Assembly (NCBI RefSeq): GCF_000021745.1
Contig: NC_011666.1
Location: forward strand, 1,426,001 to 1,490,000
Direction of reading: 5' to 3'
Length of the DNA stretch: 64,000 nucleotides
Source of the DNA: Methylocella silvestris BL2
GTDB lineage: Bacteria; Pseudomonadota; Alphaproteobacteria; Rhizobiales; Beijerinckiaceae
The first letter of the stretch is position 1; each line of letters begins with the position of its first letter. The notes under the pieces are model-generated. The model was not told the DNA's origin. It saw only the letters and a list, made by a program, of their open reading frames with translations, and did no database searches. The translations under genes were made by a program, and so were the position numbers. Shown in pieces: positions 2,341 through 39,854 of this stretch.

Positions 2341-3924
<1,584 letters not shown>

Positions 3925-5438: not shown

Positions 5439-5442
5439 CGTC

Positions 5443-11526: not shown

Positions 11527-11860
11527 GAACCGTCCTGTCGCCGGCGCGCGGCCTGGCCGGCGAGAACGACGTCGAGCCGCGCCGACGCTCCCGGACCCGT
11601 CCGTGCGCCGCGCTGCAGAGTGAAAGAAAAAACACTAATCGGTTGCGCCCGATTGAAATGTGCGCTGGCGCACATGCCGGCCGCCTGCCGCTCGATTTTC
11701 CATTTCTCCCTTGCGCCGGGCTTGCCCGTTGCTCGGCCAGCCTCGATCCAGCTTCGACTGCAAACAATGCGAATGATCCGGAGAGCCGCTCCTTAATGCC
11801 TTTGCGGCATAGTGCCGGGCAGTTCGCAAGGGTTCACAGGACGAGCGGAACCGCCCGGCA
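11527..11860. other. Divergent intergenic region, MBL gene / histidine kinase
   Basis: This 334-base gap should hold both promoters. Open frames through it look like shadows of neighbouring sequence. I see no terminator, RNA gene or clear operator. Confidence 0.5.
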
Positions 11861-13417: not shown

Positions 13418-13604
13418 ACGGGGCGCCCGATTTTTTCCGACGGGATGCCTGATTGCGATCCGCGCGTCCGGCAAATGGAAATAATTCATCGAAAATCGTC
13501 GTGATTTAACGCCTTTGTGGGCGGATCGGCGCGCGAAAAGCTGATAAAGCGCGTGCGATGGCGCGCCAAAGACGGCGCTGCAGGAAAAACAGCAAGGAGA
13601 GGCC

Positions 13605-15206: not shown

Positions 15207-15225
15207 GTCGAGGCGATGCCGTCGA

Positions 15226-15810: not shown

Positions 15811-15822
15811 GAATCGTCACGC

Positions 15823-23912: not shown

Positions 23913-24821
23913 CTATTTCGCGCAGGCGGATTCGGTTATGATGTCGAGGCTTGAGAGCTCGCCCGAGAGGATAAAATCGCCATAATCGAGCTTGAGCGCC
24001 CGCGATATTCCGTTCTGATATAGGTCAAAAGCAAGAATATAGCTTGGGCTTTCATCCTTTTTGCCCGTTTCGAAATAGCTGATCGAAACCGGCCATCGCG
24101 TCATCCCGGCAAGTTCGCCAATCTGCGCCGCCTTTTCCGGAACCGGCGTATTGATTGGACGGCCGATATAGGTCGTCGTCTCGAAGAGCTTTTCACCGGT
24201 GTCCGAACCGTCGAAGACTTTGAGTTCGAGAAGATTCTTTCCGGCTTCTGCCGCGGCGATGATGCGCTTCAGGTGCTCGGTTGGAAAGACCACGTCGTCG
24301 CCGAGTTCGAGCTTGCTGCGCTTCGGCTTGGCGAGATTGACGAGCAGCGGACCGCGGCCGGCCTTCACCGCCTTGCCGTCGATCGATTCGGCAAGGCCAT
24401 TGTCGACGCGAGTCTGCATCTTGAAATCGAACGTCTTGCCGTCCGAATCCTCGAAGGTCGCCGAAAGCATATCCGAGACGCGGGTCGGACCTTCGGCCGG
24501 CTGCAATTCGGTCATCTGCCGGAAGTTCTGCACATAGCCTTCGCAAGGAGAGCCGGTGAAATCAAACGCAATGCGGCCATGCGCGGCGGTCGGGCTCTTG
24601 GCGCCGACGGATTTTGAAAGGCTCAACTCATAGACGGCGCGATGCGGCGTCAGCGAGATGGCGGCTGCTGGATCGGCGTCCTTCAGCTGATCCATCTTGA
24701 CGTGATCGGGCTTGATCTGATCCGGCGCCGTTCGGCCGGCCTCGGCGCGGACAACGGCCCCGCCAGCGACTAGACAAATAAACGCGCCGGAAATCAGGAG
24801 CCGTGCATGTGAGTAAGACAT
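23913..24821 (-). CDS. eipB: EipB-like periplasmic envelope integrity protein (DUF1849)
   Basis: A 302-residue exported protein with a signal peptide over residues 1-26 (MSYSHARLLISGAFICLVAG start, V-R-A-E cleavage). The segments ISLTPHRAVYELSLSKS, GRIAFDFTGSPCEGYVQNFRQ and SYFETGKKDESPSYILAFDLYQNG match the DUF1849/EipB family of alphaproteobacteria. In Brucella this family forms a spiral-shaped beta-barrel in the periplasm and is needed for envelope integrity. One Cys in SPCEGY and one near the C-terminus (ESACAK) could form the conserved disulfide. AAGGA precedes the ATG. Confidence 0.85.
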   Translation of the reverse strand: MSYSHARLLISGAFICLVAGGAVVRAEAGRTAPDQIKPDHVKMDQLKDADPAAAISLTPHRAVYELSLSKSVGAKSPTAAHGRIAFDFTGSPCEGYVQNFRQMTELQPAEGPTRVSDMLSATFEDSDGKTFDFKMQTRVDNGLAESIDGKAVKAGRGPLLVNLAKPKRSKLELGDDVVFPTEHLKRIIAAAEAGKNLLELKVFDGSDTGEKLFETTTYIGRPINTPVPEKAAQIGELAGMTRWPVSISYFETGKKDESPSYILAFDLYQNGISRALKLDYGDFILSGELSSLDIITESACAK

Positions 24822-25433
24822 GTTCGTTGATCCTTGATGATGGCGACGGCCAAACGGTTCCCTCCCCAGGAAACGAATCTTGCCAAGGCGTGCAGCCTAA
24901 GGTGATTGGACGGCGCTTGCAACTTATACAGGCCGATGGCGCGCTGGGCAGGCCCTCGCGCGCAGCGCCGGCCGGGGTTTTACTGCTCTGCGTCCGGGGC
25001 GGAGCGCCCATAATGTCACGGATGGCGCGATGTTTGCTTGGCGTTTCTTGAATGAACGGTGGACATCTTCGAGAGGCCGTGTCCCGCGGCTTTGAACGCG
25101 AATCGATCCGCGGCGTTACAATGCTGGCGCCGGAAGGCTGCCCCAAACTGGCAAAATTGGTCGCGCTTCGTTAAATTTCCCTTACAGAGAGCCGCTATTT
25201 GAACGATTCATCTGGCAATTAACCAAGCCCGGCGATTTGCCGGTCGGGAGGCTTGCGAGCAAAGCAAAAGGATTGCGCGACCGCTAACGAAGATTTCACG
25301 CCAGGCTCACACAATAAGCGAGTTGCGCCCAATCCTCTCCGCGGAGCGGCGGGGCTGTCATTGTCAGGGTGCTCGAACTGTTGTATTTATCATCGGCGAA
25401 TGACCTCAATCTTTGAGGCGCAAGGGCTATCTG
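24822..25433. other. Large intergenic region
   Basis: A gap of about 610 bases between the divergent eipB and the next rightward gene. No ORF in it looks coding, no tRNA-like fold or terminator is visible, and it contains an AT-richer stretch around 25150-25230 that may carry promoters. Confidence 0.5.
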
Positions 25434-26399
25434 ATGCTGTATGGAACTTTCATCTACTTCAGAGATTCTATTCGGCGGTTCCCGGCTCTACATCGATTGG
25501 TTTGGCGGACGCGCAAGGCCATCTGGGCGTTGCAGAATATCGGACAGCCAAAACGGCCGATCGTCGACGCCGGCCCGGTCGTGATCGAAGCCATTCGCAC
25601 TGGGCGGCCAATGGCCGCAGGAAAAATCGGCTTCACGGAATTGCTGGGCGTCCGGCATTACGTCAAGCGCAGGGAAGCGCGCGCGAAGCGGCAACCCTTG
25701 CCGCCCTATCCCCCCTATGCGGCGGATACGCTGTTCATCAATTCGGGCGTGTTTCCAAAGACCGACGAATTCTACGACCGCTTCGGCGCCTTCTTCATCG
25801 AAGCTATCGCTAATATGGACGTCTTGGCGTCCTGGGGCCTCGCCGGAGAAGCCAACATCTTCAACACGGTCGCGCCCGAGGCGACTCTTGTGACGCGGAT
25901 GAGCCTTGAGCCCTATCTGCAGTCTGCTCCCTGGACGGCGGCTCTCGAAGGCAAGCGGGTCCTGATCGTCTCGCCCTTCATCGACACGATTTCGCAGCAA
26001 TACCAGCGTCGTGAGGAGATCTGGGAGGACAAGAGCATCCTGCCCGCCTTCACCATGCTCTCGCTCCGGGCCCCGTTCAGCGCAGGGTTGGTCCCGCCGA
26101 AACAACCGGACTGGATCGCCGCGGTCGAGGAGCTGAAGGCGCAGATGGACGCGATCGATTTCGACGTCGCGCTGATCGGAGCCGGCGCTTTTTCGTTGCC
26201 GCTCGCGACCCACGCCAAGAAGCGCGGCGGCGTCGGCATTCATATGGGCGGATCGCTGCAGCTGCTGTTCGGCGTCTATGGCAACAGGTGGAAAGAAGAC
26301 AAGGAATTCCAGCGCTTCTTCAACGACAGCTGGGTGCGGCCGAGCGCCGCCGAAACGCCCGAAGAAGTCCATAAGAACGAGAACGCCTGCTACTGGTAG
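25434..26399 (+). CDS. Uncharacterised protein, possible GT-D-fold glycosyltransferase
   Basis: A 321-residue cytosolic protein without membrane segments. The C-terminal part (FDVALIGAGAFSLPLATHAKKR and GVGIHMGGSLQLLFGVYGNRW) resembles the GT-D fold domain found in DUF1792-type glycosyltransferases, as I recall it. A central WTAALEGKRVLIVSPFIDTI segment looks Rossmann-like. The true start is unsure: a TTG at 25413 opens the frame, but the ATG at 25434 has an AAGGG nearby. No sugar or polysaccharide genes flank it, so the donor and acceptor are unknown. Confidence 0.5.
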   Translation: MLYGTFIYFRDSIRRFPALHRLVWRTRKAIWALQNIGQPKRPIVDAGPVVIEAIRTGRPMAAGKIGFTELLGVRHYVKRREARAKRQPLPPYPPYAADTLFINSGVFPKTDEFYDRFGAFFIEAIANMDVLASWGLAGEANIFNTVAPEATLVTRMSLEPYLQSAPWTAALEGKRVLIVSPFIDTISQQYQRREEIWEDKSILPAFTMLSLRAPFSAGLVPPKQPDWIAAVEELKAQMDAIDFDVALIGAGAFSLPLATHAKKRGGVGIHMGGSLQLLFGVYGNRWKEDKEFQRFFNDSWVRPSAAETPEEVHKNENACYW

Positions 26400-26520
26400 G
26401 CGGACCGAAGAAATCGCCAGCAGTGCGAGGCGTTGACGAAAGCTGAAATTTTCGTCTCCGGGCGCTACTGGCCGGCGCCAATATGCTCTATATGCTCCGC
26501 AAAACAAACGGAGCCTGAGC

Positions 26521-26994
26521 ATGAGCAAGACGGAAGCAAAACTGGCGGCGCTTGGCGTTACTCTGCCGACCCCGGCCGCGCCGGTCGCCAATTACCTCGG
26601 CTATGTGGCGACAGGCTCGCTGCTCGTCATTTCCGGTCAACTGCCCTTTGGCGCCGACGGCAAGATCGATCCCGCGCATGCGGGCAAGATCGGCGCGGAA
26701 GTCTCGGCTGAGGCGGCCAAGGCGGCGGCGCGGCTCTGCGTCATCAATGTTCTGGCTCAGGCCAGGGCCGCCCTCGGCGATCTCGACCGGATCGTGCGGT
26801 GCGTGCGGCTCGGCGGTTTCATGAACGCCGGCCCCGGCTATTTCAATCTGCCGCCTGTGATGAACGGCGCATCCAATTTCATCGTCGAGGTTTTGGGTGA
26901 GGCCGGACGCCACGCGCGCTCAACCGTCGGCGTCGCCGAACTACCGCTGAACAGCGCGGTCGAAGTCGAGGCCATGTTCGAATTTTCGGCCTGA
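26521..26994 (+). CDS. RidA/YjgF family protein
   Basis: A 157-residue protein of the longer RidA subgroup. VATGSLLVISGQLPFGADG, AAKAAARLCVINVLAQARAALGDLDR and GYFNLPPVMNGASNFIVEVLGEAGRHARSTVG are the family blocks, with the conserved Arg in the final H-A-R-S-T segment that binds the carboxylate of imine intermediates. RidA proteins hydrolyse reactive enamines and imines formed by PLP enzymes. GGAG precedes the ATG. The glycerophosphodiesterase starts nine bases after its stop, so they form an operon. Confidence 0.9.
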   Translation: MSKTEAKLAALGVTLPTPAAPVANYLGYVATGSLLVISGQLPFGADGKIDPAHAGKIGAEVSAEAAKAAARLCVINVLAQARAALGDLDRIVRCVRLGGFMNAGPGYFNLPPVMNGASNFIVEVLGEAGRHARSTVGVAELPLNSAVEVEAMFEFSA

Positions 26995-27003
26995 CGGCGA
27001 GCG

Positions 27004-27771
27004 ATGAAACGCCACCGCGCGACGGTAGACGCTCCGGCCTGGCTGACGGCGCGCCCGATCGCCCATCGCGGGCTGCACTGCATCGCGCGCGGCGTCGTCG
27101 AAAACAGCATCGCCGCGGCGGAAGCGGCGATCGCTAAAGCCTACGCCATCGAATGCGACCTCGAACTGGCGGGCGATGGCGAAGCTGTGGTGTTTCACGA
27201 CGAAACGCTGGACCGGCTAACCCATGCCGAGGGCCGCGTCGCTCAGTTCTCCAGCGCCGAACTCGAAACTGTGGGTTTTCGCGGCGCCGACGCCCATATC
27301 AAAACCCTGCGCGCCTTCCTCGCCGCGGTCGCCGGCCGGACGCCCCTCATCATCGAAATCAAGAGCCGCTTCGACAGCGATTTCCGCCTCGCCGAACGCG
27401 CGCTCGAAGCGTTGTCCTCCTACGCCGGACCCGCCGCGCTGAAAAGCTTCGATCCCGTTATCGTCGCCTTCCTGCGGGCGCGCCGGCCGGGACGGCCGGT
27501 CGGCCTGATCGCCGAGGCGCATTTTACGGCCGCCGACTGGCCGCGTCTTTCGGTCAAGCAGCGCGTCGGCCTGGAAGCGTTCACGGATTTCGCGCTGGCG
27601 CGGCCGGATTTTCTCTCCTGGAATGTCGCCGATCTGCCGCATGCGGCGCCGCAACTCTGCCGCCACAGCCTTGGGCTTCCCGTCATGACCTGGACAGTTC
27701 GGACGGACGAAGAACGGCGCCGGGCCGCCCATTTCGCCGACCAGATCATCTTTGAAGGCTTTGAGCCATAA
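27004..27771 (+). CDS. Glycerophosphodiester phosphodiesterase family protein
   Basis: A 255-residue TIM-barrel phosphodiesterase without a signal peptide, so probably cytosolic. The catalytic residues are visible as PIAHRGLH (His21, Arg22), AIECDLELAGDG (Glu50, Asp52) and VVFHDETLDRLT (His65), with LIIEIKSRFD as the second acidic segment. It likely cleaves glycerophosphodiesters to glycerol-3-phosphate and an alcohol. A conserved WTVRTDEE segment lies near the C-terminus. It is co-transcribed with the RidA gene. Confidence 0.9.
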   Translation: MKRHRATVDAPAWLTARPIAHRGLHCIARGVVENSIAAAEAAIAKAYAIECDLELAGDGEAVVFHDETLDRLTHAEGRVAQFSSAELETVGFRGADAHIKTLRAFLAAVAGRTPLIIEIKSRFDSDFRLAERALEALSSYAGPAALKSFDPVIVAFLRARRPGRPVGLIAEAHFTAADWPRLSVKQRVGLEAFTDFALARPDFLSWNVADLPHAAPQLCRHSLGLPVMTWTVRTDEERRRAAHFADQIIFEGFEP

Positions 27772-27968
27772 AATCATCCGGCTCCAACGAGCGGATTTGT
27801 CAGCGCGCCTTTGCGTATCCGAGATGAAACTGACATCGCCTGGAGCGACACTGTTTACTGCCGAGATCTCGTTGTTCGCACCGCGCGCGGCTACTGTATT
27901 CTTTCATGCATAGCTAAAAGCGCGTGAACAATAAATTCCAAAGAAAAGCTAGCTGAAAAAACATTTAT

Positions 27969-27986
27969 GAGTTGTTATAGCAACTC
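27969..27986. promoter_or_regulatory. Short inverted repeat upstream of the S1 protease
   Basis: GAGTTG and CAACTC flank a six-base centre in the AT-rich 284-base region before the protease gene. It could be an operator or a 5' hairpin in the mRNA; no regulator can be named. Confidence 0.3.
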
Positions 27987-28055
27987 CAAAGGATAGAGTC
28001 GTATAGTGGCGTTATCTGCATTCAACAATGATATTCGTGAATTCGGGGAGAGGTA

Positions 28056-29237
28056 ATGAAATTCAGCAAAAGCGGCCTTGCAAAAATGGCCGGCCCAGCG
28101 AGTTTATCTGTGCTGATTTGCGGACTTGCCTCGCAAGTCCAGGCGCAGGCGGTGTCGTCGTCGCGCGTGCAGCCCCTTTCCGGCAACCCCAATGGCGTCA
28201 TCGATTTCGCCAACGCAAAGCCAATGCCGCTTCCTCGTATCGACAAGGCCCCCGCGCCAGGAGCGCCGCGCGCTCCCTCCGCGGCAAAAAAATCATCGGT
28301 TGGCGTGGTTCCCGGCTCTGATTCGGGGGACGGCCAGACGAGCCCAATTCAGCTCGCGCCGGCGAAATCTTCGCTGAAGGCTGTAACGCCTTCGCTTGGC
28401 GTGACGCAGGCGAATGGAGTGACGTCGCAGGCGAATGGACAGGCCGCTCCCTATCACCCTTACACGATCGCCCAGGCGAGCGCGCTCAAGGACAAAACGC
28501 AGAATTCCTTTCCCTATCGCGCAGCAGGGAAGCTGTTCTTCCTGGACAATGGCCAAACCTTTGTCTGCTCGGCGTCGCTCATCAAGTCCGGACTTCTTGT
28601 CACCGCTGCGCATTGCGTGGCAAATTTCGGCACGGGCCAATATTATTCCGACTGGGTCTATGTCCCGGCCTACGATAATGGCAAGGCGCCTTATGGGAAA
28701 TGGAAAGGCGTTCAGGCTTTCGCGCTGCCAAGCTATGTGAATGGGAGCGATTCCTGCGCCACTCCCGGCGTCGTCTGCGAAAATGACGTCGCGGTCATCA
28801 CCCTCTACAAAGGCCGGTCGCTGCCGGGCAAGCGGACAGGCTGGCTCGGCTACGCATATGGCGGATTTGGCGTAAACCCATCAGGCCAGGCGCACATCAC
28901 GCAGCTCGGATATCCCGTCGGCCTCGACAAAGGCGCTGTCATGGAGCGTGGCGATTCGCAAAGCTACATTGATCCGGCTAACTCCAACAACACGATCATC
29001 GGATCCAACATGGACGGCGGCTCCAGCGGCGGTCCTTGGATCCTCAATTTCGGCATCGGCCCAACGTTTACGGGCGAAGACGCCGGCGTCGATCCAGATC
29101 CCAACACCGTCGTCGGCGTGACCAGTTGGGGCTACACCGTCACCTCTCCCAAGGAGCAGGGAGCGTCGCCCTTCACGAGCAATAATATCGTCAACCTTGT
29201 CAACGCCGCTTGCGCCGCCTCGCCGTTGGTGTGCTAG
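28056..29237 (+). CDS. Secreted trypsin-like serine protease (S1)
   Basis: A 393-residue exported protease. Residues 1-31 form a signal peptide ending V-Q-A-Q. Residues 32-135 are a Pro/Ala/Ser-rich low-complexity segment, perhaps a propeptide or spacer. The catalytic triad is present: LVTAAHCVA with His186, ENDVAVITL with Asp244 and GGSSGGPWI with Ser324. Two more Cys pairs (DSCATPGVVC and AACAASPLVC) suggest disulfides. GGGGAGAGG lies just before the ATG. The long non-conserved N-terminus is unusual for the family. Its substrate is unknown. Confidence 0.9.
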   Translation: MKFSKSGLAKMAGPASLSVLICGLASQVQAQAVSSSRVQPLSGNPNGVIDFANAKPMPLPRIDKAPAPGAPRAPSAAKKSSVGVVPGSDSGDGQTSPIQLAPAKSSLKAVTPSLGVTQANGVTSQANGQAAPYHPYTIAQASALKDKTQNSFPYRAAGKLFFLDNGQTFVCSASLIKSGLLVTAAHCVANFGTGQYYSDWVYVPAYDNGKAPYGKWKGVQAFALPSYVNGSDSCATPGVVCENDVAVITLYKGRSLPGKRTGWLGYAYGGFGVNPSGQAHITQLGYPVGLDKGAVMERGDSQSYIDPANSNNTIIGSNMDGGSSGGPWILNFGIGPTFTGEDAGVDPDPNTVVGVTSWGYTVTSPKEQGASPFTSNNIVNLVNAACAASPLVC

Positions 29238-29300
29238 AGCATCTACCGCAAAAGTCGCAGACTCTTGCGATGGGAAGATATGTTATTTCAAACGGATAAG

Positions 29301-29331
29301 GCGTTTCACGATTCCACAGATCGTAAAACGC
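29301..29331. repeat. Imperfect palindromic intergenic element
   Basis: Arms of 12 bases (GCGTTTCACGAT and ATCGTAAAACGC, one mismatch) surround a seven-base loop just downstream of the S1 protease. It looks like the dispersed palindromic elements common in intergenic DNA of Hyphomicrobiales, but I see only this one copy here. Confidence 0.4.
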
Positions 29332-29340
29332 TCCAGGCAA

Positions 29341-29375
29341 AAATAAAGGGCGCCGCTTTATTTTAAGCGGCGCCC
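29341..29375 (-). terminator. Rho-independent terminator of the desaturase gene
   Basis: An 11-base stem (GGGCGCCGCTT with AAGCGGCGCCC) with a short AT loop at 29348-29375 is followed on the minus strand by a T-rich run. It lies downstream of the leftward desaturase gene and probably ends the sphingolipid transcript. Confidence 0.7.
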
Positions 29376-29466
29376 TGGATTTCCCGGCCGGCGCATTTAA
29401 TTGCCGCCGGCCGCTTGTAAATTTGATGATCGCGTAAAGCCCCGCTTCGCCGACGCCAGAGGCGAT

Positions 29467-30504
29467 CTACCCGTCGACCTTCGCAGCCGCCGGCTTGTTT
29501 GCGGCGCTGCGGTCGACGCGGGTGTAGAGCGTATAGGCCGGGTCGAAGATGAATTTGACCAACAGGCCAGCCCAGGATTTATGCGTCTTCAGCCCATCGT
29601 AGAATTCAGGCGCCATGCGCTTCAGCTCCGGCAGCCGCCGCCACGGAATGTCGGGAAAATCATGATGCTCATTGTGATAGCCGATGTTCAGCGCGACGAA
29701 ATTGAGCGGGCCGTAATAATCGAACGTCTCCTGAGCCGGATCATTGGTGAAATGCTCCTGCACCCAGCGCGCGCCGAGCGGATGCAGGCCGCCGACCGAG
29801 AACCAGAATGAGGCGAGGAGATACACCAGCGCGTTCGGCCCGAACGCCAGCAAGATCGCGACGTCGAACAGGATGACGCAGGCGGCGTTGATGAAAGTCC
29901 AGCGTCCCCACATCGGCACCGTGCCCCGCAGCCGCCCGAGCCGGGCGAGCTGGAAGGCCGCGAAGAAGAACATCCACGCCGCCTTGCCGTACCAGCTGTG
30001 GCCAAACGTGCGCGCTTCCCAATGGCTCGGCAGATCGGCGTCGTAATCGTAGTCGCCGAGATGGGAGTGATGCTTGATGTGATAATAGCGAAAGCCCATC
30101 GCGGTCGGCACGCCATTGGGAAGATCGGCGAGAATGCCGGCCCATTTGTTCCACACCGGCCCCTTGAAGATGGCGTTGTGGCAGGCGTCATGGATAACGA
30201 CGAACATCGCGTGATTGGCGAAGGCGCCGACGCAGAAGGCGACGATGAGCGCCAGCCACCAATAGCCGATGCCGAGCGAGCCCATGAAGGCTGCGATCGC
30301 GACCTGCAGGGCCACGACGCAGAGGGTGATGACCGCCGTCAGCGGGTCATAGCCGACAAGCTGCGCGACCTCGGGATGGGCCGCGAGGATCGCGCGCCGC
30401 CGGATCGGATGGGGACGCGGCTCAGCGGTTTTGAGAAAACCGTCCGCGGCAGGCGCTGCAGCGTCGACGCCGACGCCTCGGAACTCTGATGCGTGCAGGT
30501 TCAT
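29467..30504 (-). CDS. Fatty acid desaturase, sphingolipid delta-4 (DES1)-like
   Basis: A 345-residue membrane desaturase. The three histidine boxes are HDACH (105-109), HIKHH (142-146) and HNEHH (277-281). Sequence around them closely follows eukaryotic dihydroceramide delta-4 desaturase as I remember it: RRRAILAAHPEV near the start, FANHAMFVVIHDACHNA, the GLHPLGARWVQEHF region, and ETFDYYGPLNFVALNIGYHN followed by EHHDFPDIP. Hydrophobic segments at about 55-100 and 205-235 fit four to six membrane passes. AGGAG precedes the ATG. It lies 195 bases downstream of the ceramide synthase candidate and of the serine palmitoyltransferase-like gene, all on the minus strand, which supports a sphingoid substrate. 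Delta-4 regiochemistry is inferred. Confidence 0.85.
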   Translation of the reverse strand: MNLHASEFRGVGVDAAAPAADGFLKTAEPRPHPIRRRAILAAHPEVAQLVGYDPLTAVITLCVVALQVAIAAFMGSLGIGYWWLALIVAFCVGAFANHAMFVVIHDACHNAIFKGPVWNKWAGILADLPNGVPTAMGFRYYHIKHHSHLGDYDYDADLPSHWEARTFGHSWYGKAAWMFFFAAFQLARLGRLRGTVPMWGRWTFINAACVILFDVAILLAFGPNALVYLLASFWFSVGGLHPLGARWVQEHFTNDPAQETFDYYGPLNFVALNIGYHNEHHDFPDIPWRRLPELKRMAPEFYDGLKTHKSWAGLLVKFIFDPAYTLYTRVDRSAANKPAAAKVDG

Positions 30505-30699
30505 TTTTGTCTCCTGAAGATGGATCGCGCCAAGATTAGAGCGAGCCGCTTCATGTCGATCTGATCCAGCTCATATCATACTTCAAATCATGCGACAGTC
30601 TTGCGCCATTTCGTGCGGCGGCGTGATCGGCGAACACTTGGAATAACTCTAGTTCGCCGGCAAGTTGCGCGCCTTCCCGAGGGATATAGACGGCCCGCG

Positions 30700-31872
30700 T
30701 CAGGCGGCGAGACTTTTCTCGTAAATCCGGTGCACCTTGTCGATGCGCGCGCCGGCAAGTTCGATCGGCCGGCGCATGCCCATATTGTCTTCAAGCACCC
30801 AGCCGAATTCGACGTTCGAATAGGAGCTGTCGGCGCTACGGCGCCTGATTTCCTCGATGAAGGCGAGGATGACCGCGCCGCCCACGGCTTTGCGCTGCAG
30901 CGCCCGGCGCACGCCAAACAGCAGCAGCCGTCCCGACGTGAATTTATGCTTCCTGATGCGCGAAATGACTTTCGGCAATCCGAACGGAAACAGACGTCCG
31001 CCGAGGTCGGCGGTGATTTCATGCAGATTGGGCAGCACCACCGCAAAGGCCTGGGGCACGCCGTCGAGCTCGATCATGACGCCGCCTTCAGGCGGCATGA
31101 TATAGCGCAGGCTTTCGGCGCTCGACATGAATTCTTCCAAGGTGAACGGAACAAAACCCCAATTGTCCGCCCAGGCGTCGTTGAAGATATCGATGATGAT
31201 CTTGGCCTCTTCCGCCATATCGTTGAGGCGGAGCTCGCGGATCTTCAGCCGGTCGCGCCATTCCGGCCGCGTGATCACGCTCGGGCGCGCCTCACGGTCC
31301 TTTTGCGTGACGTCGTAACGGTAGGAGATCAGATCGCGCGCCTTGACATAGCCGAGCCGCTCGAGCGCCGCGACGAGATAGGGCGGGTTCCAGGTCATGA
31401 AGACCATCGGCTGAGAGTTAAATCCCTCAACGAGCAGCCCGAGTTCCCCATTGATCGACGGCGAGAACGGTCCGTAGATCAGTTTTTCGCCGCGACCCTG
31501 CAACCAGCCTTCGGCGGTTTGCGTCAGGGCCGCGACGACTTCATCATCGTCGATGGCGTCGAGGCAGCCGAATTGCGCCCGCGACGCCCCGAGCGGCGCG
31601 GGAACCTCCGGCTTGTAGATCTGCGCCATGATGCGGCCGACCGGCTTGCCATCCTTCAGCGCGAGCCAGCCCTGCCAGTCGACCAGCTTGAAATGCGGGT
31701 TGAGCCGCGCGCCATACAGGGTCCAGCGCTCGGCGTCGAGCGGGGGCGCAAAACCCTCCATGCCCTTGTAAAGCTGGCGCGGCAGGCGGCAAAAGCTCAG
31801 AAAATTCTTCACGCCGTCGGCCACAACGATTTCGACCGCGCCCGTCTTTGCGGCTTGGGATCTAGCGTCCAA
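30700..31872 (-). CDS. GNAT-type N-acyltransferase, candidate bacterial ceramide synthase
   Basis: About 390 residues with two GNAT-like halves. VKNFLSFCRLPRQLYKGMEGFAPPL opens the first half, and FEEFMS-like and FNDAWADNWGFVPFTLEEF mark the second. SGRLLLFGVRRALQRKAVGGAV resembles an acyl-CoA binding segment. This architecture and length match the protein shown to N-acylate sphingoid bases in Caulobacter (bCerS), as I recall it; the family is otherwise annotated hypothetical. I chose the TTG at 31872 because TAGGAG lies ten bases upstream; a TTG at 31983 is also possible. It sits between the serine palmitoyltransferase-like and desaturase genes. Confidence 0.65.
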   Translation of the reverse strand: MDARSQAAKTGAVEIVVADGVKNFLSFCRLPRQLYKGMEGFAPPLDAERWTLYGARLNPHFKLVDWQGWLALKDGKPVGRIMAQIYKPEVPAPLGASRAQFGCLDAIDDDEVVAALTQTAEGWLQGRGEKLIYGPFSPSINGELGLLVEGFNSQPMVFMTWNPPYLVAALERLGYVKARDLISYRYDVTQKDREARPSVITRPEWRDRLKIRELRLNDMAEEAKIIIDIFNDAWADNWGFVPFTLEEFMSSAESLRYIMPPEGGVMIELDGVPQAFAVVLPNLHEITADLGGRLFPFGLPKVISRIRKHKFTSGRLLLFGVRRALQRKAVGGAVILAFIEEIRRRSADSSYSNVEFGWVLEDNMGMRRPIELAGARIDKVHRIYEKSLAA

Positions 31873-31999
31873 AAGAGAAGCGCTCCTACGCGATTTCGCG
31901 ATTCTCCGGCCGGGATTCGGGAACAATCCCCGCCCCAGGAGCGGACCGGCGCGCAAGGTGTCAGCTGGGCGCGAAGGCGTCAAGCGCGGCCAAAATGCG

Positions 32000-33229
32000 T
32001 CAGGTTGCGCTCACGGCTTCGACGGCCTGAACCGCCGCCGCGATCGACGGGCGTTTGGCGAGGAGATCGATCACCGCCTTGATCTCTTCCTGCGTATGCG
32101 AGGCGGAGATGAAGAAGCGCAGCCGCGGCTGGTCCTTTGGCACGCCGATCTGGATGATTGGCGGCACATAGAAACCATTTTCCATCAAATGGCGTGACGC
32201 GTCGAGGGTCTCGAGGCTGTCGGCGAACAGGATCGGAACGACGCCGCGTCCGATCGCGGGGCCGGTGTCGAGCCCGGCCTCATGCGCCAGCGTGACGAAC
32301 AGTTCGGCGTTGGCGCGCAGACGCTCGATGCGCCAGTGTTCCTCCTGCATCAGCCGGAGAGCGGCGGCGGCGGCGGCGGAGATCACCGGCGACAGGCCGA
32401 CCGAATAGACAAAGCCCGGCAATGTGTAGCGCATCCAGTCGATCACGGCGGATTTGCCGGCGATGAAGCCGCCGCAGGACGCAAGCGCTTTAGATAGCGT
32501 GCCGACCATCAGATCGACCCGCTTCGGATCGACGCCGCAATGCTCGCAAAGGCCGCGGCCCTCCTCGCCGAGAACGCCGAGCGAATGCGCCTCGTCGATC
32601 ATCAGCCAGGCGTTGTGCTGTTCCTTGATCTCGACAAGGCGCGGCAGGTCGGCGATGTCGCCGTCCATGCTGTAAAGGCCCTCGACGACGATCATCACAT
32701 TGCGATAGCGATCGCGGCGTTCGCGCAGCAGGAAATCGAGATGATCGAAATCATTGTGCCGGAACATAATGGTTTCGGCGACGGCGCTTTTGGCCCCGCT
32801 GACAATGCTATTATGCGACAGTTCGTCGATGAACAGAGCGTCGCGCGAGCCGAGCAGGTGTGAAATTGTCGTCACATTGGCGAGATAGCCTGACACGAGA
32901 GTGACGGCTGATTCCGCGCCGATGAATTTGGCGATGTCGTCTTCCAGAATATGGTGCAGCGAACGCTGGCCGCCGACGAGGCGGGACGCGAGCGCGCCGA
33001 CGCCGAATGTGTCGAGCGCCGCCGCCGCAGCGCTTTTCACCGCAGGATGAGTGGAGAGGCCAAGGTAGTCATAATTGGCGAAACTCGTGAAGCGTCGGCC
33101 GCTTGCCGCTGCTTCCTGGCGCAGACTGTCGATCGGAGCGAAAAAGGGGTCGCCGCTTTCGAGGTACGCCTTGCCGGCGAGACGAAAGCGCCGCGTCGCG
33201 TGATCTTCGAGGCTGTTGAACTTGGTCAC
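32000..33229 (-). CDS. Serine palmitoyltransferase-like PLP enzyme (alpha-oxoamine synthase)
   Basis: A 409-residue fold-type I PLP enzyme of the alpha-oxoamine synthase family (serine palmitoyltransferase, KBL, BioF, ALAS). FANYDYLGLSTHPAV, VGALASRLVGGQRSLHHILE, the cofactor segment MIDEAHSLGVLG (Asp212) and the PLP-binding Lys247 in GTLSKALASCGG are clear. Specificity within the family is not certain from sequence. The adjacent N-acyltransferase and DES1-like genes favour serine palmitoyltransferase, which condenses serine with an acyl thioester to 3-ketosphinganine. The start is a GTG at 33229. No acyl carrier protein or ketosphinganine reductase is seen nearby. Confidence 0.75.
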   Translation of the reverse strand: MTKFNSLEDHATRRFRLAGKAYLESGDPFFAPIDSLRQEAAASGRRFTSFANYDYLGLSTHPAVKSAAAAALDTFGVGALASRLVGGQRSLHHILEDDIAKFIGAESAVTLVSGYLANVTTISHLLGSRDALFIDELSHNSIVSGAKSAVAETIMFRHNDFDHLDFLLRERRDRYRNVMIVVEGLYSMDGDIADLPRLVEIKEQHNAWLMIDEAHSLGVLGEEGRGLCEHCGVDPKRVDLMVGTLSKALASCGGFIAGKSAVIDWMRYTLPGFVYSVGLSPVISAAAAAALRLMQEEHWRIERLRANAELFVTLAHEAGLDTGPAIGRGVVPILFADSLETLDASRHLMENGFYVPPIIQIGVPKDQPRLRFFISASHTQEEIKAVIDLLAKRPSIAAAVQAVEAVSAT

Positions 33230-33672
33230 TTAGCTCGGATGTCCAATGGTTCAAGGAAAGGTTTTTCGTCGCCGCGGCGCGCCGGTTGAAAATTTCAATC
33301 GGATCGCCATGATGAACGCGAGCAATAGCATCGAGTTTTCAAGGCGGCAAAAGCCAAACTGTAACCTTGCCGCGCCCTCGCCGCGTAAACATCTATAAAC
33401 ATATATTTTTCAAAATGTTAACAAGCTTCTCAATTCAAGTTACAAATCGTAACAGAAGCCTTGGACGCCCCAGTCGGCCGCCAAAACCTCCCCACCGCGG
33501 AAAAATATCCTCCCCTCGAATCGACCTTTTCGCCGCCTCGCATCGAGAAAAAACACTTCGTGATCGGGATGAGAAGCTCAAGCTTTGCTGATCGCTTCCG
33601 CGCCTTTCGGTCGGCTGCCTTTTGACTTAATGATGGGCGGTCCGGCCGCGCTTCAACTTGAAGGATTACGCC
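33230..33672. other. Divergent AT-rich promoter region
   Basis: A 443-base gap between the leftward sphingolipid cluster and the rightward four-gene operon. The part at 33360-33450 is clearly AT-rich and probably carries promoters for one or both. Open frames in it do not look coding and I see no RNA gene. Confidence 0.5.
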
Positions 33673-34851
33673 ATGAATGATGTCGTCCTGCGCACTCCAA
33701 TGCAATATCTCGACAGGGCCAATGGCGCGCTGCGCGAGCTTGGACTGCTGCCGGCCAGAATCGAGGCCGCGCCCATCAACGCGCTGCTGGAGAAAATCTC
33801 CGATCTCGATCCCGAAAAGATCGCCGTCATCGCCAAGACCCTTGGCGAAGCCTCGGTGTTCAACGAAGTGGTGCGCAATGAGACCGCAGCGATGTCGATC
33901 GGCCAGCGCTACCAGGAGATCGCCAAAAGCTTCGACTCCATCCGCGACGACGCCAAGATGATGGTCGATCAGCTCGATGACGGCAAAATCGATCTGATGG
34001 AGCGCGTCAACAACGTCTGGATGAAGGTCAGCCGCGGCGACATTGGCGTCCGCTTCGACAAGATCAGATCGGTCTATCTCGAGGTGACCGCGGCGACCCA
34101 CGATCAGATCGATCGCGAGGGCCGCATTCTCGAAGCCTATCGCGATTTCCGCGGCGCGATGAAGCAGTCCGAAGTGATGGCGCTCGAGGTTCAGGAATCG
34201 GCCGAGGCGAAGCTTGCGGCCGCCAAGGCCGGCCTCAAAACCGCGGCCGAGGCGGTCGCCAATTTTGCCGGAACAGCGCCGGCGGAACGCGCCAATCTGG
34301 AGCTCGTGCGCGATGAGCATCTTCGCCGCGTCCAGAACGAGGAGAAGCGCTATCAGATCGCCAAGGATCTCGCCGACAATCTGACCATCAGCTACAACAC
34401 CTCCGAGGTCATCATGGCCCGGCTGATGCAGACGACCAACGCCAAGGAGCGGGTCTATGCGCAGTCGGTCAGCTTCTTCTCGACCAATGACAGCGTGCTG
34501 ACGGCGCTCCGCGCCTCCTTTACCGGCCTGTTCGGCCTGCATGAATCGACCGCGACGCTCGATGCGATGAAAGAAGGGGTGTCAAAGTCGATCGAGGTGC
34601 TGGCCGAGATCGGCGGATCGGTGCAGGAGGCGGCGCTGCGCAGCGGCTACGGCCCGACCATCCGCGCCGACGCGGTGAAGAAACTCGTCGACAGCGTCGT
34701 TAATTATCAGGAGCGGGCGATCGGCATCGTCGACGAAATGCGCGACATGGCGACGAAAAACTCCACCGAGATCCGCGACGCGGTGGAGGCCGGCAACCGG
34801 CGCATCGCCAAGCTGATTACGGAAGGGAAGGCGTTCGACGTCAATGGCTGA
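33673..34851 (+). CDS. Coiled-coil protein, first gene of an uncharacterised operon
   Basis: A 392-residue predominantly helical protein without signal or membrane segments. I do not recognise it firmly; the long amphipathic helices (about residues 150-250) and overall layout recall TelA-type toxic-anion-resistance or PspA-like proteins, but no diagnostic motif is seen. The ATG at 33673 has AAGGA upstream; a TTG at 33658 is less likely. It overlaps the next gene by eight bases, and the four genes to 38220 are closely spaced, so they form one transcription unit. Confidence 0.7.
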   Translation: MNDVVLRTPMQYLDRANGALRELGLLPARIEAAPINALLEKISDLDPEKIAVIAKTLGEASVFNEVVRNETAAMSIGQRYQEIAKSFDSIRDDAKMMVDQLDDGKIDLMERVNNVWMKVSRGDIGVRFDKIRSVYLEVTAATHDQIDREGRILEAYRDFRGAMKQSEVMALEVQESAEAKLAAAKAGLKTAAEAVANFAGTAPAERANLELVRDEHLRRVQNEEKRYQIAKDLADNLTISYNTSEVIMARLMQTTNAKERVYAQSVSFFSTNDSVLTALRASFTGLFGLHESTATLDAMKEGVSKSIEVLAEIGGSVQEAALRSGYGPTIRADAVKKLVDSVVNYQERAIGIVDEMRDMATKNSTEIRDAVEAGNRRIAKLITEGKAFDVNG

Positions 34852-35779
34852 CAGCGCCGCCGTCGCAGGTTCCGCCGAAGTAAAACTCAACGACCTCATG
34901 CTCGCCATGGACGTCGTCGACACGCTGCGGCATCAGGAAGCTTTTGTCGCGCGCGAGCTTGACGAGGAGGGCCGCGAGCAGGAGCTGACCGCGCGGCTGC
35001 GCAAGATTTACCGTGACCAGGGCATCGAGGTGTCGGATGCGGTGATCGCCGAGGGCGTCAAAGCCCTGAAGGACAGCCGCTTCGTCTATACCCCGCCCCG
35101 GCCGGGCCTCGGCGTCACGCTTGCGCGTCTGTGGGTGCGGCGCGGACGCGTCGGCGCATTCGCAGCTGGACTGCTCGGCCTCTTCGGCCTTGCCTGGATC
35201 GGCTATTACATTCTGGCCGAGCGGCCGGCTCAGCAGAGACAGATCGAGCTTTCGACCAATCTGCCGAAAGCGCTCGAGGCGGCCTATGCCGACGCCAGCG
35301 CGGAGGCGAAGGCCCCCGCCGCCCGCGACAGAGCCGCAGAATTGCTCGCCGACGGACGGCGCGCGGCGCAGAACGCCGATCCGGCCGCAGCCAAGTCGGC
35401 CCTCGACGGCCTCAAAACGCTGAGCGCGGATTTGCGCCAATCGTATCAGATCAGGGTCGTCGCCAGCCCAGGCGAGAAGAGCGGCGTTTTTCGCATTCCG
35501 GACCGCAACACCAATGCGCGCAATTACTATCTTATTGTCGAAGCGGTCGGCGCGGACGGACAGCCGATCGCGCTGCCGATCAAGAGCGAGGAAGACGGGA
35601 CGACGAAAATGACGACCAAATGGGGCCTGCGGGTCGACAAGCAGACCTACGACCGGGTCGGCGCCGACAAGGCCGATGACGGCATCATCCAGAATCGGAC
35701 CCTCGGCGAGAAACGGCGCGGCTTCCTCGACGTCGATTATTCCGTGCCGGCCTCCGGCGCGGCGATTACCCAATGGTGA
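34844..35779 (+). CDS. DUF6384-like protein with one membrane helix
   Basis: A 311-residue protein. The N-terminal helical part begins KLNDLMLAMDVVDTLRHQE, which I associate with DUF6384. A single hydrophobic segment follows an Arg-rich stretch at about residues 104-125 (GAFAAGLLGLFGLAWIGYYI), so the N-terminus is probably cytosolic and the rest periplasmic. The C-terminal portion has a beta-rich domain with DRNTNARNYYLIVEAVG and WGLRVDKQTYDRV. It overlaps the first gene of the operon and is four bases from the third. Function unknown; it could anchor the coiled-coil partners to the membrane. Confidence 0.7.
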   Translation: MADSAAVAGSAEVKLNDLMLAMDVVDTLRHQEAFVARELDEEGREQELTARLRKIYRDQGIEVSDAVIAEGVKALKDSRFVYTPPRPGLGVTLARLWVRRGRVGAFAAGLLGLFGLAWIGYYILAERPAQQRQIELSTNLPKALEAAYADASAEAKAPAARDRAAELLADGRRAAQNADPAAAKSALDGLKTLSADLRQSYQIRVVASPGEKSGVFRIPDRNTNARNYYLIVEAVGADGQPIALPIKSEEDGTTKMTTKWGLRVDKQTYDRVGADKADDGIIQNRTLGEKRRGFLDVDYSVPASGAAITQW

Positions 35780-35783
35780 GCGC

Positions 35784-37223
35784 ATGATCACTGGCCAGCA
35801 GGCGCTGTGGCGGCTGGAGCAGGCGACCGCGGCCGTCCGCGCCGAGGAAACGCAAAGCGCGAATGCGCTTGCGGCGGCGGACCGGGAGCTTGCGGGGCTG
35901 CGCGCCGGCCGCACGGCCCTGCTGCGGCAGCTCGCCGGAGCCCGGCTCGACGCCATGCAAAGCGAAAAGATCGCCGGCGATCTCGCCTCCGCCGAACAGC
36001 GGGCCCTCAAGATGCTGGATGACGGCCGGGCGGCGCTGGAGCAGTTGATGGCGAAGATCGCCGCGGCGCAGGCGGCGCGCATGGCGGCCGAAGGCGCGCG
36101 CCGCGCCAAATCCGACGAGGTCGCGGAAATCCTCAATGCGCTCGAAGATCTCCAGGCCGGCGTTGAGGCGAAGGTGCGCGCCTCGGGCGATTGGATCGCC
36201 AGCAAGGAGGCGGTCGACCGCGCGCAAAAAATTTTCGCAGCGGCGGAGTCGAAAGCCACCGCTGCCACGGACGATAGCGCGGCCAAGGCCAAGCCCTATG
36301 AGGACGACCCGCTGTTTATGTATTTGTGGTCGCGCGGCTTCGGCACGTCAGCCTATCGCGCCGGGCTGTTCGTCCGCTTCATCGACGAAAAGGTCGCGCA
36401 GCTGGTCGGCTTTCAGAATGCGCGGCCGAATTACGCCATGCTGAAGGAAATCCCGGCGCGGCTGCGCCAGCACGCCGAGCGTTGTCGCGCAGCCGTCGAC
36501 GAGGAGCGGCGCAAGCAGGCCGCGATCGAGGCGGCGGGCCTCGACGCCGCCGGCGCAAAGCCGCTGAACGAGCGCCTCGACGCGGCGCGGCTGGCGCTGA
36601 GCGAGGCCGACAGCCGGCTGAAGGCGGCAGACGCGACGCTGCAAAAGCTCGACGCAGAGCACGACAGGACCCTCAAATCCGCCGCGCAAACGACCGGGGC
36701 CGAGGCGGTCGCAATCGTTTCGGACGCGGATTCCCGCGCCTCCATCGCCGAGCTCTATCGCAAGGCGGCGATGACCATGTCGCCGGCGGACGACAGCCTG
36801 GTGCGGCAGATCGAGGCCGGCGACAAGACCCTTGCGGCGGCGGAGCGGCGGCGCGTCGATCTTTTGGGCAAGGCGCAGGCGATCGCGCAGCGCCGCCACG
36901 AGATTGAGACGGAGCGGGCGCGCTTCTATCGCCGCGGCTATGACAATCCGATGGGCGGCTTCTCCAATGAATCGGCGATTTCCGATGCGCTCGGCGGATT
37001 TCTCAAAGGCGCGATCACGGGCGCCGTCCTCGGCCAGGTGTTTCAGGGCGGCTTTCAGGAGCGCGACCGGCGCGCCGACAGCGGCTTTGGCGGCGACGGC
37101 GGCTTCAATTTTCCGGGCGGCGCGGGCGGCGGCTGGATCGATCCCGGCAGCGGCGGTTTTGGCGGTGATGGCGGCGGAGGCTTTGGCGGCGACGACGGCT
37201 TCCGCACCGGCGGCGGCTTCTGA
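35784..37223 (+). CDS. Long coiled-coil protein with Gly-rich tail
   Basis: A 479-residue protein starting at an ATG four bases after the previous stop. Most of it is Ala/Glu/Arg-rich coiled coil (residues 5-170 and 230-390). A short conserved block EDDPLFMYLWSRGFGTSAYRAG lies between them. Residues 400-440 contain GFLKGAITGAVLGQVFQGGF, a glycine-zipper-like membrane or oligomerisation segment, and the last 45 residues are Gly/Asp/Phe-rich (GFGGDGG repeats). No known domain is recognised. The context suggests a membrane-associated scaffold working with its neighbours. Confidence 0.65.
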   Translation: MITGQQALWRLEQATAAVRAEETQSANALAAADRELAGLRAGRTALLRQLAGARLDAMQSEKIAGDLASAEQRALKMLDDGRAALEQLMAKIAAAQAARMAAEGARRAKSDEVAEILNALEDLQAGVEAKVRASGDWIASKEAVDRAQKIFAAAESKATAATDDSAAKAKPYEDDPLFMYLWSRGFGTSAYRAGLFVRFIDEKVAQLVGFQNARPNYAMLKEIPARLRQHAERCRAAVDEERRKQAAIEAAGLDAAGAKPLNERLDAARLALSEADSRLKAADATLQKLDAEHDRTLKSAAQTTGAEAVAIVSDADSRASIAELYRKAAMTMSPADDSLVRQIEAGDKTLAAAERRRVDLLGKAQAIAQRRHEIETERARFYRRGYDNPMGGFSNESAISDALGGFLKGAITGAVLGQVFQGGFQERDRRADSGFGGDGGFNFPGGAGGGWIDPGSGGFGGDGGGGFGGDDGFRTGGGF

Positions 37224-37248
37224 AACGCTCTGCTTCGAGAGCTGACGC

Positions 37249-38220
37249 ATGAAGGCGCTCGCCAAAGCCAGCTTTCCAATCTTCGCCATCGCCGGTTTCG
37301 CCCTTGCCGCCGCCGCGTTTTTCGCGGCGCGCGGGGCGGACGCCCTCTGCGGCGGCGAGCGGTTCGCAATCGAGCGCGCGGGCGGCGGCGCCTCGCCCTA
37401 TATCCGGCTCACCGCCGGCTCCGTAACCGGCGCCTTCCTTCTGGACTATGGCGCGACCGAGAGCCTGATGTCCTCCGCCGCGCTCCCGCCCGGGGCCGGA
37501 TCGACGGAGATTTCCAATTTTTCGCTTCCCAGTTTTTCGCATGGGCGCTTCAAGCCGGGCTCGTTCGAGCGCCTGTCGCTCCAGCCTGAGGGAGGCCAGC
37601 TTGGCGTCGTCGGGACCGATTTCCTGGCGCGGCTCAGCGCGCAATTCAGCGGGGACAAGGTTTTTCTCGGACCAGAGGCTTGCGCGGCGTCGGCGCTCGC
37701 GGCGAAGGGCCTTAAACCGATCGCGCAGGCCGGATTCTTTTCGTCGGACCCCTCACGGCTTCCCGCCGGCCGGCCCAATGTGCCGGTGGTTTTCCTGAAT
37801 TTTGGCGGCGGCTCGTCAATATTTGCGCAAATCGACACCGGCTATGAGGATGTGAAATATCGCCACAGCGTCGATATCAACCGGCCGCTGTTCGAGCGGC
37901 TCGCAGCGAGCGGAGCCGCGCTAGAGCTTGTCGAGCAAGCGACGATCACGACTTGCAGCGGGTCGGAGCCGCGCGCCGTCTACCGGCTCAAGGACCGGCC
38001 GCTCGTGATCGAATCGGAGGCCGGCGCGCCGATCCGGCGCATCGCGGATTTTTATCTGACAGTGAAGGCGCCGAACAGCTGCGGCGGCATCGCGACGATG
38101 CAGGCCCCCGCGGCCCAACTCGGCGCATCTTTTCTCAAAAGCTTTGGGACGATCGTGTTCGATCCAAAGTCCGAAACCGTATGGATCGAGGCTGAGAGCG
38201 GGCCGGACTCCGGCCGCTAA
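37249..38220 (+). CDS. Exported bilobal retropepsin-like aspartic protease homologue
   Basis: A 323-residue protein with an N-terminal hydrophobic signal (residues 9-28). It shows two aspartic-protease-like halves in one chain. The first has FLLDYGATESLM (D66-Y-G, normally D-T/S-G) and a matching VVGTDFLARLSAQFSGDKVFL strand block. The second has IFAQIDTGYEDVKY (D196-T-G) and LGASFLKSFGTIVFDP near the C-terminus. The Thr-to-Tyr change in the first motif could impair catalysis. It is the last gene of the four-gene operon, 25 bases after the Gly-rich coiled-coil gene. Protease activity is unproven. Confidence 0.6.
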   Translation: MKALAKASFPIFAIAGFALAAAAFFAARGADALCGGERFAIERAGGGASPYIRLTAGSVTGAFLLDYGATESLMSSAALPPGAGSTEISNFSLPSFSHGRFKPGSFERLSLQPEGGQLGVVGTDFLARLSAQFSGDKVFLGPEACAASALAAKGLKPIAQAGFFSSDPSRLPAGRPNVPVVFLNFGGGSSIFAQIDTGYEDVKYRHSVDINRPLFERLAASGAALELVEQATITTCSGSEPRAVYRLKDRPLVIESEAGAPIRRIADFYLTVKAPNSCGGIATMQAPAAQLGASFLKSFGTIVFDPKSETVWIEAESGPDSGR

Positions 38221-38396
38221 CCCTCCCGTCGCATCACGAACTTGATCTCTCCGCGCCGGGCCGCAAACCTAAGTATAATGGACCAAAAGCGCCGCATTGC
38301 CCAATGTTGCGAGGACTTCAGATCCTCGGAAAGGACGAGAAGGCCCATCGCGCCGCCGACGGCGGCGGATATTTTGCTTCACAACGGAGAACTCAC

Positions 38397-38633
38397 ATGC
38401 GGAAGAACTTCATCTATGCTTCGACAGCGCTGCTTATGCTCGCCTTTACCGGCGCAGCTTCAGCCGAGGGCCAGAACGCCTCGGAGCGTAACCAGACGTC
38501 GGAATCGCGCAGCAGCGCCACGACCGAGAGCTCCGGTAATCCCCACAAGACATTGAGCCCCAGCGATGAAGTCGGCGACCATACCAGCGCCTATGACTCA
38601 AAGCACGGCTACGACAGCGACGACGCGCATTGA
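38397..38633 (+). CDS. Small secreted acidic/Ser-rich protein
   Basis: A 78-residue protein starting at the ATG at 38397, which has GGAGA upstream. Residues 1-23 form a signal peptide (MRKNFIYASTALLMLAFTGA start, A-S-A-E cleavage). The mature part is hydrophilic, rich in Ser, Asp, Glu and His, and probably disordered. I recognise no domain. It lies 176 bases after the four-gene operon and may be transcribed separately. Confidence 0.7.
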   Translation: MRKNFIYASTALLMLAFTGAASAEGQNASERNQTSESRSSATTESSGNPHKTLSPSDEVGDHTSAYDSKHGYDSDDAH

Positions 38634-38695
38634 GGCGGACGCCACATAGCGTCTGACGAAAGGCGGGGCGGCGCTGTCCTGCCTCCAGGCTCGCC

Positions 38696-39802: not shown

Positions 39803-39854
39803 TACGGTTTTCTCCTCAACCCCGTTATTGAGCTTCGCCAAAAAGCGCTCTGCC

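What the first reader, a model, noticed from the sequence alone, without database searches (positions are those of the whole stretch)
29467..33229. Bacterial sphingolipid cluster containing a DES1-like delta-4 desaturase
A serine palmitoyltransferase-like enzyme, a GNAT-type ceramide synthase candidate and a desaturase lie together on one strand. The desaturase follows the eukaryotic dihydroceramide desaturase pattern throughout, including the three His boxes and the ETFDYYGPLN...GYHN block. Bacterial sphingolipids are normally saturated (dihydroceramides), so this predicts a bacterium that makes ceramides with a 4,5-double bond. Whether this has been described is not known to me.
Basis: partly seen in the sequence, partly recalled or inferred. 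Interest (0 to 1): 0.8.

Follow-up and report, generated by a model that had tools for sequence, protein, structure and literature searches.

The report
Bacterial sphingolipid cluster with Δ4-type desaturase
A methane-oxidising soil bacterium and its relatives carry a gene set that predicts membrane ceramides with the double bond typical of animal, plant and fungal sphingolipids, which bacteria are generally said to lack.

Summary
In detail: on the minus strand lie a PLP α-oxoamine synthase (33229-32000), a GNAT-type protein (31983-30700) and a desaturase (30504-29467), in a Methylocella-like genome. The desaturase carries the Pfam sphingolipid Δ4-desaturase signature PF08557 (41.9 bits, cut-off 23), as do 36 of 36 bacterial relatives scanned. 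The GNAT protein is 36-37% identical to proteins in the ceramide-synthase position of two alphaproteobacterial sphingolipid clusters. The PLP enzyme is not a canonical serine palmitoyltransferase (SPT); it groups with synthases encoded beside polyketide synthases, the kind of which PfSgaB has proven SPT activity (2025 paper). The trio is linked in 54 of 57 Beijerinckiaceae-type loci. In relatives its neighbours include a ceramide-2-hydroxylase-like protein, a family 21 glycosyltransferase, and a module of ACP, ketoacyl synthase, dehydratases, ketoreductase (SDR) and GT2; the window's genome holds all of these elsewhere. The SDR occurs in 33 of 36 desaturase-bearing family genomes and 0 of 113 others (shared descent contributes). 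Best reading: a eukaryote-like route to Δ4-unsaturated, possibly 2-hydroxylated and glycosylated ceramides. There are no lipid data, no eukaryotic sequences were available for a tree, and Δ4-desaturation versus C4-hydroxylation is undecided.

The parts
32000..33229 (-). P0003: PLP-dependent α-oxoamine synthase of the polyketide-linked (SgaB-like) clade; proposed long-chain-base synthase (serine plus acyl thioester)
   Evidence: function inferred from PfSgaB in PMC12134224
30700..31983 (-). P0002: GNAT-type N-acyltransferase of the bacterial ceramide synthase kind; start codon uncertain (homology from about residue 48)
   Evidence: no Pfam or NCBIfam family
29467..30504 (-). P0001: membrane desaturase of the sphingolipid Δ4-desaturase (DES) family, three His boxes, Lipid_DES N-terminal signature

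Best explanation
The three genes are the core of a sphingolipid pathway. P0003 condenses an amino acid, probably serine, with an acyl thioester to a 3-ketosphinganine. An SDR encoded elsewhere (G000:C1:1305270-1306067) is the likely ketone reductase. P0002 N-acylates the base and P0001 introduces a 4,5 double bond into it. A remote Scs7-like hydroxylase and a family 21 glycosyltransferase probably hydroxylate the acyl chain and add a sugar, and the ACP/ketoacyl-synthase/dehydratase module around the SDR may supply the acyl chain. Shown here: homology, conserved linkage, co-occurrence. Inferred: every enzyme activity, the order of steps and the product.
For: Lipid_DES over cut-off in P0001 and in 36 of 36 relatives. 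P0002 is 37% and 36% identical to proteins in the ceramide-synthase position of two SPT clusters, and a relative sits beside an SPT over cut-off in a Saprospiraceae genome. P0003 lies in a 22-row clade (100/99) with polyketide-linked synthases; PfSgaB of that kind makes 3-ketosphinganines from serine (PMC12134224 section 8). All three linked in 54 of 57 Beijerinckiaceae-type loci. Scs7-like hydroxylase gene in 36, SDR in 15, GT2 in 17, GT21 in 4 of those 57 loci; the hydroxylase's only PDB hits at E<=0.01 are two Scs7 entries. SDR in 33 of the 36 desaturase-positive and 0 of the 113 desaturase-negative family genomes. 10 of 11 Bacteroidota genomes with the desaturase hold an SPT-type enzyme at 486-674 bits.
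Against: P0003 passes no SPT cut-off and scores highest for BioF; AU tests do not exclude a BioF/ALAS or KBL sister relation of its clade. P0002 relatives were found in only 2 of 5 canonical SPT loci fetched. No CerR was found in the genome. In Bacteroidota the desaturase is not beside a synthase. The co-occurring genera are the same nine, so shared descent explains part of the SDR pattern. DES-family enzymes may hydroxylate C4 (recalled). No structure model could be made, and no lipid data were found.
Confidence: 0.65

Rival explanations
1. Same pathway, but P0001 hydroxylates C4 of the sphingoid base (phytoceramide, DES2-like) or is bifunctional, instead of making a pure Δ4 desaturase.
For: DES2-type enzymes belong to the same family (recalled); PF08557 does not separate them; Caulobacter uses a DesA-family protein, CC_0202, as a hydroxylase on the amide-linked acyl chain (PMC11324152 passage).
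Against: No direct evidence either way; the family name in Pfam is Δ4-desaturase.
Confidence: 0.2
2. The synthase uses alanine, glycine or another amino acid, so the product is a 1-deoxy or other sphingoid-like amide lipid, which P0001 then desaturates or hydroxylates.
For: P0003 is outside canonical SPT and below all SPT cut-offs; 1-deoxyceramides are abundant in Black Sea bacterial communities (PMC11334938 section 19).
Against: PfSgaB, of the polyketide-linked kind with which P0003 groups, prefers serine almost exclusively; a GT21 and GT2 in the associated gene sets suggest a head group.
Confidence: 0.12
3. A sphingolipid pathway in which P0001 modifies the N-acyl chain, not the base.
For: CC_0202 of Caulobacter is reported to hydroxylate the amide-linked acyl chain of sphingolipids.
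Against: P0001 has the Lipid_DES signature, which was not found in the Caulobacter control genome (0 of 14 controls); a separate Scs7-like candidate for acyl hydroxylation is encoded in the genome.
Confidence: 0.08
4. BioF/KBL-type metabolism beside an unrelated acyl-lipid desaturase; no sphingolipids.
For: Highest NCBIfam score of P0003 is BioF; weak sister position of BioF in one tree (86/63); AU tests do not reject it.
Against: Conserved three-gene linkage, a separate BioF-type gene and two ALAS, the ceramide-synthase homology, PF08557.
Confidence: 0.03

Closest known systems
Eukaryotic dihydroceramide Δ4-desaturase (DES1/DEGS1, Pfam Lipid_DES + FA_desaturase)
   Same: Both Pfam domains over cut-off; three His boxes; HNEHHDFP region as in DES (resemblance recalled)
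Caulobacter/Sphingomonas-type ceramide pathway (spt, cerS, cerR, acpR, aasR)
   Same: N-acyltransferase P0002 is homologous to the protein in the cerS position; a dedicated ACP exists in the associated module
   Different: Synthase from another clade, no CerR found, an SDR instead; desaturase, Scs7-like hydroxylase and GT21 added
PfSgaABC polyketide-linked sphingolipid cluster of Pseudomonas fluorescens MYb115 (PMC12134224)
   Same: Synthase clade shared with a plasmid relative of this arrangement; the SDR is 42% identical to the SDR of that plasmid cluster
   Different: No polyketide synthase beside the trio; ceramide synthase and desaturase present
Yeast ceramide fatty-acid hydroxylase Scs7
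   Same: Only PDB relatives of the remote hydroxylase (4zr0, 4zr1)
   Different: 222 aa, matches from Scs7 residue 177 on in 4zr0, so without its N-terminal part

Membership tests
Sphingolipid Δ4-desaturase (DES, Lipid_DES) | PF08557 N-terminal signature over gathering cut-off | tested here: met
   41.9 bits of 23; 37 of 37 members of A2 match
Sphingolipid Δ4-desaturase (DES, Lipid_DES) | FA_desaturase domain with three His boxes | tested here: met
   103.1 bits of 29.7; eight His invariant
Sphingolipid Δ4-desaturase (DES, Lipid_DES) | Phylogenetic placement with eukaryotic DES | not testable with these tools
   No eukaryotic sequences held; none in PDB or viral contigs
Sphingolipid Δ4-desaturase (DES, Lipid_DES) | Δ4 double bond formed in the base | not testable with these tools
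   Needs lipid analysis or expression
Bacterial ceramide synthase (bCerS/CerS) | Full-length homology to the protein in the cerS position of canonical SPT clusters | tested here: met
   37% over 379 and 36% over 369 columns; but relatives seen in 2 of 5 canonical SPT loci fetched
Bacterial ceramide synthase (bCerS/CerS) | Direct comparison with Caulobacter CC_1154 | not tested
   Sequence not fetched by name
Canonical serine palmitoyltransferase | Score over an NCBIfam SPT cut-off | tested here: not met
   305.6/640, 303.3/500, 212.9/670
Canonical serine palmitoyltransferase | Inside the SPT clade | tested here: not met
   Outside in both trees; sister relation not rejected, p-AU 0.271
BioF / KBL / ALAS | Score over the family's cut-off | tested here: not met
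   BioF 356.1/426.45, glycine C-acetyltransferase 294.6/460 and 244.7/493, ALAS 249/338.55
BioF / KBL / ALAS | Inside one of these clades | tested here: inconclusive
   Separate clade (100/99) in both trees, but sister relations not rejected (p-AU 0.303-0.439)
SgaB-like polyketide-linked synthase | Same clade as synthases beside a type I PKS | tested here: met
   22-row clade 100/99 with L084, L144, L196, L198; PKS beside the synthase in L196 and L198 by annotation and near it in the own genome; not checked for L144; PfSgaB itself not held
SgaB-like polyketide-linked synthase | PKS gene beside it | tested here: not met
   No PKS beside the trio among the window ORFs at 24000-40000

The most novel reading that the evidence does not exclude
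Beijerinckiaceae bacteria (Methylocella, Methylocapsa, Methylocystis, Methylosinus, Beijerinckia) make Δ4-unsaturated, 2-hydroxylated, glycosylated ceramides by an all-bacterial counterpart of the eukaryotic glucosylceramide pathway, built from an SgaB-like synthase, an SDR, a bacterial ceramide synthase, a DES-family desaturase, an Scs7-like hydroxylase and a GT21, fed by a dedicated acyl-carrier module.
Probability: 0.45. Interest if true: 0.87.

Novelty: new variant of a known kind. Interest (0 to 1): 0.72.

Why it matters
Bacterial sphingolipids are described as simple, largely for want of complex glycosyltransferases and desaturases (PMC12724326, one passage). If the reading is right, cultured methanotrophs make the sphingosine-type double bond themselves. 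Unsaturated sphingoid bases in environmental samples (a median of 46% of Black Sea ceramide structures carry one double-bond equivalent in the base; PMC11334938 section 19) could then have bacterial sources. The spread of the desaturase over at least three bacterial phyla makes the origin of eukaryotic DES directly testable.

Tried and rejected
CerR: the own genome was searched with the CerR-like protein of L158; the best of three hits (71.7 bits) looks to me like a complex-I-associated NAD-binding protein, so I rejected it. Mobile origin: the desaturase has no close relative on plasmids (10 records, at most 26.5% identity) and none in viral contigs. Solved structures: no relative of the desaturase (one search gave two hits at E 0.71-0.75 that I treat as chance). 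Long reading frames antisense to GC-rich genes (such as family 3) were set aside. The PKS-synthase-GNAT locus of the same genome was considered as the real sphingolipid locus; it is probably a second, separate pathway. Papers: 30 of 89 listed; 20 of 94; 16 of 17; 12 of 21; 12 of 19; 15 of 697,101, useless. I saw no report of a bacterial dihydroceramide Δ4-desaturase in the titles and abstract beginnings listed; this is partial and covers open-licence papers only. [quoted passage not shown]
Full report
What is there. The window is part of a 4.305 Mb single-contig genome; the closest named relative in the desaturase search is Methylocella silvestris TVC at 96% identity. Sixteen bases separate the synthase stop from the GNAT reading frame as listed, and 195 bases separate the GNAT gene from the desaturase, which has a good ribosome site.

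The desaturase. P0001 passes the Pfam cut-offs for FA_desaturase and for Lipid_DES, the short N-terminal signature of sphingolipid Δ4-desaturases. P0001 and 36 relatives, chosen from the 80 fetched, all match both. PF08557 was found in 1 of 190 genomes drawn from the class (the window's own) and in 0 of 14 control genomes, Caulobacter among them; the draw was sparse. In the family, relatives of P0001 at E<=1e-30 occur in 36 of 149 genomes and 9 of 43 genera. Of 575 stretches encoding relatives in GTDB genomes, the best 80 are mostly Beijerinckiaceae/Methylocystaceae, then Bacteroidota, with two Verrucomicrobiota and three other Alphaproteobacteria. In a tree of 37 rows the 17 Beijerinckiaceae-type rows, P0001 included, lie on one side of a branch (100/100) and the 20 others on the other. 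Without eukaryotic sequences, origin and direction of transfer stay open.

The GNAT protein. No Pfam or NCBIfam family recognises P0002. It is homologous to a protein in two of the five canonical SPT loci that I fetched: L158 (SPT 835 bits, over the cut-off of 670) and L160 (548 bits, below it); no relative was seen in L161, L162 or the 3-kb L101. Identities are 37% and 36% over nearly the full length. The gene order in L160, as I read the sequences (acyl-ACP synthetase-like, CerR-like, ACP-like, SPT, two LptFG-like genes, a flippase-like gene, this protein), resembles the Caulobacter order given in PMC11324152 (passages), where cerS is separate from spt and lies past lptG2/F2. A relative also lies beside an SPT over cut-off (673.6 of 640) in a Saprospiraceae genome (L128), but not in the nine other short Bacteroidota SPT loci (L129-L137).

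The synthase. P0003 scores 356.1 for BioF, 305.6 and 303.3 for two SPT models, 294.6 and 244.7 for two glycine C-acetyltransferase models, 249 for ALAS and 212.9 for the third SPT model, all below cut-off. By sequence, its best solved relative is an SPT (8guh, 3a2b; 233 bits), with a 2-amino-3-ketobutyrate CoA ligase at 216. The own genome holds five full-length synthases and one weak partial match: this one; a PKS-linked one (47% identical); a BioF-type one (422.7 of 426.45, from a frame that begins late) beside bioD-like and bioA-like genes recognised by eye; and two ALAS over cut-off. The best score in the genome with the alphaproteobacterial SPT model is 224 of 670. In two trees the canonical SPTs form a clade without P0003 (100/99; 100/96). 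P0003 belongs to another clade (100/99 in both) with PKS-linked synthases. Five of the 23 non-Beijerinckiaceae loci have a synthase near the desaturase; four were put in the trees, of which L078, L080 and L082 fall in this clade and L069 does not. AU tests reject none of SPT (p 0.271), KBL (0.303), ALAS/BioF (0.439) or BioF alone (0.305) as sister of this clade, and BioF is the nearest named row at 86/63.

Why SPT-like. PMC12134224 (abstract, outline, passages, sections 8 and 9 read) shows that PfSgaB, a PKS-linked synthase, makes 3-ketosphinganines from serine and hardly uses alanine or glycine, and proposes the SDR PfSgaC as ketone reductase. PfSgaB is not held here. As a stand-in, a plasmid of Pseudomonas sp. 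TMW 2.1634 carries a PKS, a synthase beside it, and an SDR as the fifth gene after the synthase; by locus-tag steps that is also the spacing printed for MYb115. Its synthase lies in the clade of P0003.

The rest of the pathway. Of 57 Beijerinckiaceae-type loci, 36 hold a PF04116 hydroxylase of this kind, 17 a GT2, 16 a MaoC dehydratase, 15 the SDR, 12 the ketoacyl synthase, 11 the ACP and 4 a GT21; of the 23 other loci, one holds the GT2 and none the others (my thresholds; Pfam). The own genome has ACP, ketoacyl synthase, two MaoC-like genes (one without a Pfam match), SDR and GT2 together at about 1.303-1.309 Mb, a GT21 beside the hydroxylase at about 3.348-3.350 Mb, and a second close GT21 at 1.62 Mb. 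In Methylocystis rosea the module includes a GT21. The hydroxylase hit two PDB sequences at E<=0.01, both the yeast ceramide hydroxylase Scs7. The SDR occurs at E<=1e-60 in 33 of 149 family genomes, all among the 36 with the desaturase; the three desaturase genomes without it are 84-88% complete; none of the 113 genomes without the desaturase has it. Two of the 33, in one genus, are only 48-49% identical. The genera are the same nine, so shared descent explains part of the pattern. In 11 of the 33 the SDR and the desaturase lie within 10 kb on one contig (places). The SDR is 42% identical to the Pseudomonas SDR and 37% to the SDR beside the Acidisoma plasmid synthase, which is 54% identical to P0003. 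This is the best candidate for the ketone reduction, for which no CerR was found.

Bacteroidota. Their desaturase genes are not beside a synthase in the fetched loci, but 10 of 11 such genomes searched hold an SPT-type enzyme at 486-674 bits, one of them over the cut-off; the eleventh, G195, had no match. This again ties the desaturase family to probable sphingolipid producers.

Mechanism. Most likely order: serine plus acyl thioester to 3-ketosphinganine (P0003), reduction (SDR), N-acylation (P0002), Δ4-desaturation (P0001), 2-hydroxylation, glycosylation. Reduction and acylation may be swapped, as suggested for Caulobacter. The part of the ACP/ketoacyl-synthase module is a guess. All activities are inferred.

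Novelty. [quoted passage not shown] My partial paper searches listed no report of a bacterial dihydroceramide Δ4-desaturase or of methanotroph sphingolipids by title or abstract beginning. Each enzyme kind is known; the combination in bacteria looks like a new variant.

Noticed in passing
L092 (G000:C1:2985000-3004900), 2787-16411: A second α-oxoamine synthase and a second P0002-like protein lie near a 2518-aa type I polyketide synthase frame, a CDP-alcohol phosphatidyltransferase and glycosyltransferase-like genes: probably a separate polyketide-derived sphingolipid-like pathway in the same genome.
   Followed up: partly
L191 (G000:C1:1613000-1631000), 8536-9894: A second close GT21 copy (65% identical to the Methylocapsa acidiphila one), away from the hydroxylase, with transposase-like genes some 7 kb away.
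   Followed up: no
L197 (Acidisoma sp. PAMC 29798 plasmid), 11142-13927: The closest plasmid relative of P0003 (54%) sits between an SDR and a sterol-desaturase-family protein, next to capsule genes: perhaps a sphingolipid-type capsule anchor.
   Followed up: partly
L078 (Opitutaceae MAG), 3085-10677: A Verrucomicrobiota locus with GT2, ceramide-synthase-like, synthase, desaturase and ketoacyl synthase genes together.
   Followed up: partly
window 27004-27771 and 28056-29237: A glycerophosphodiester-phosphodiesterase-family gene and a trypsin-like protease gene follow the desaturase on the other strand; no link to the pathway was looked for.
   Followed up: no
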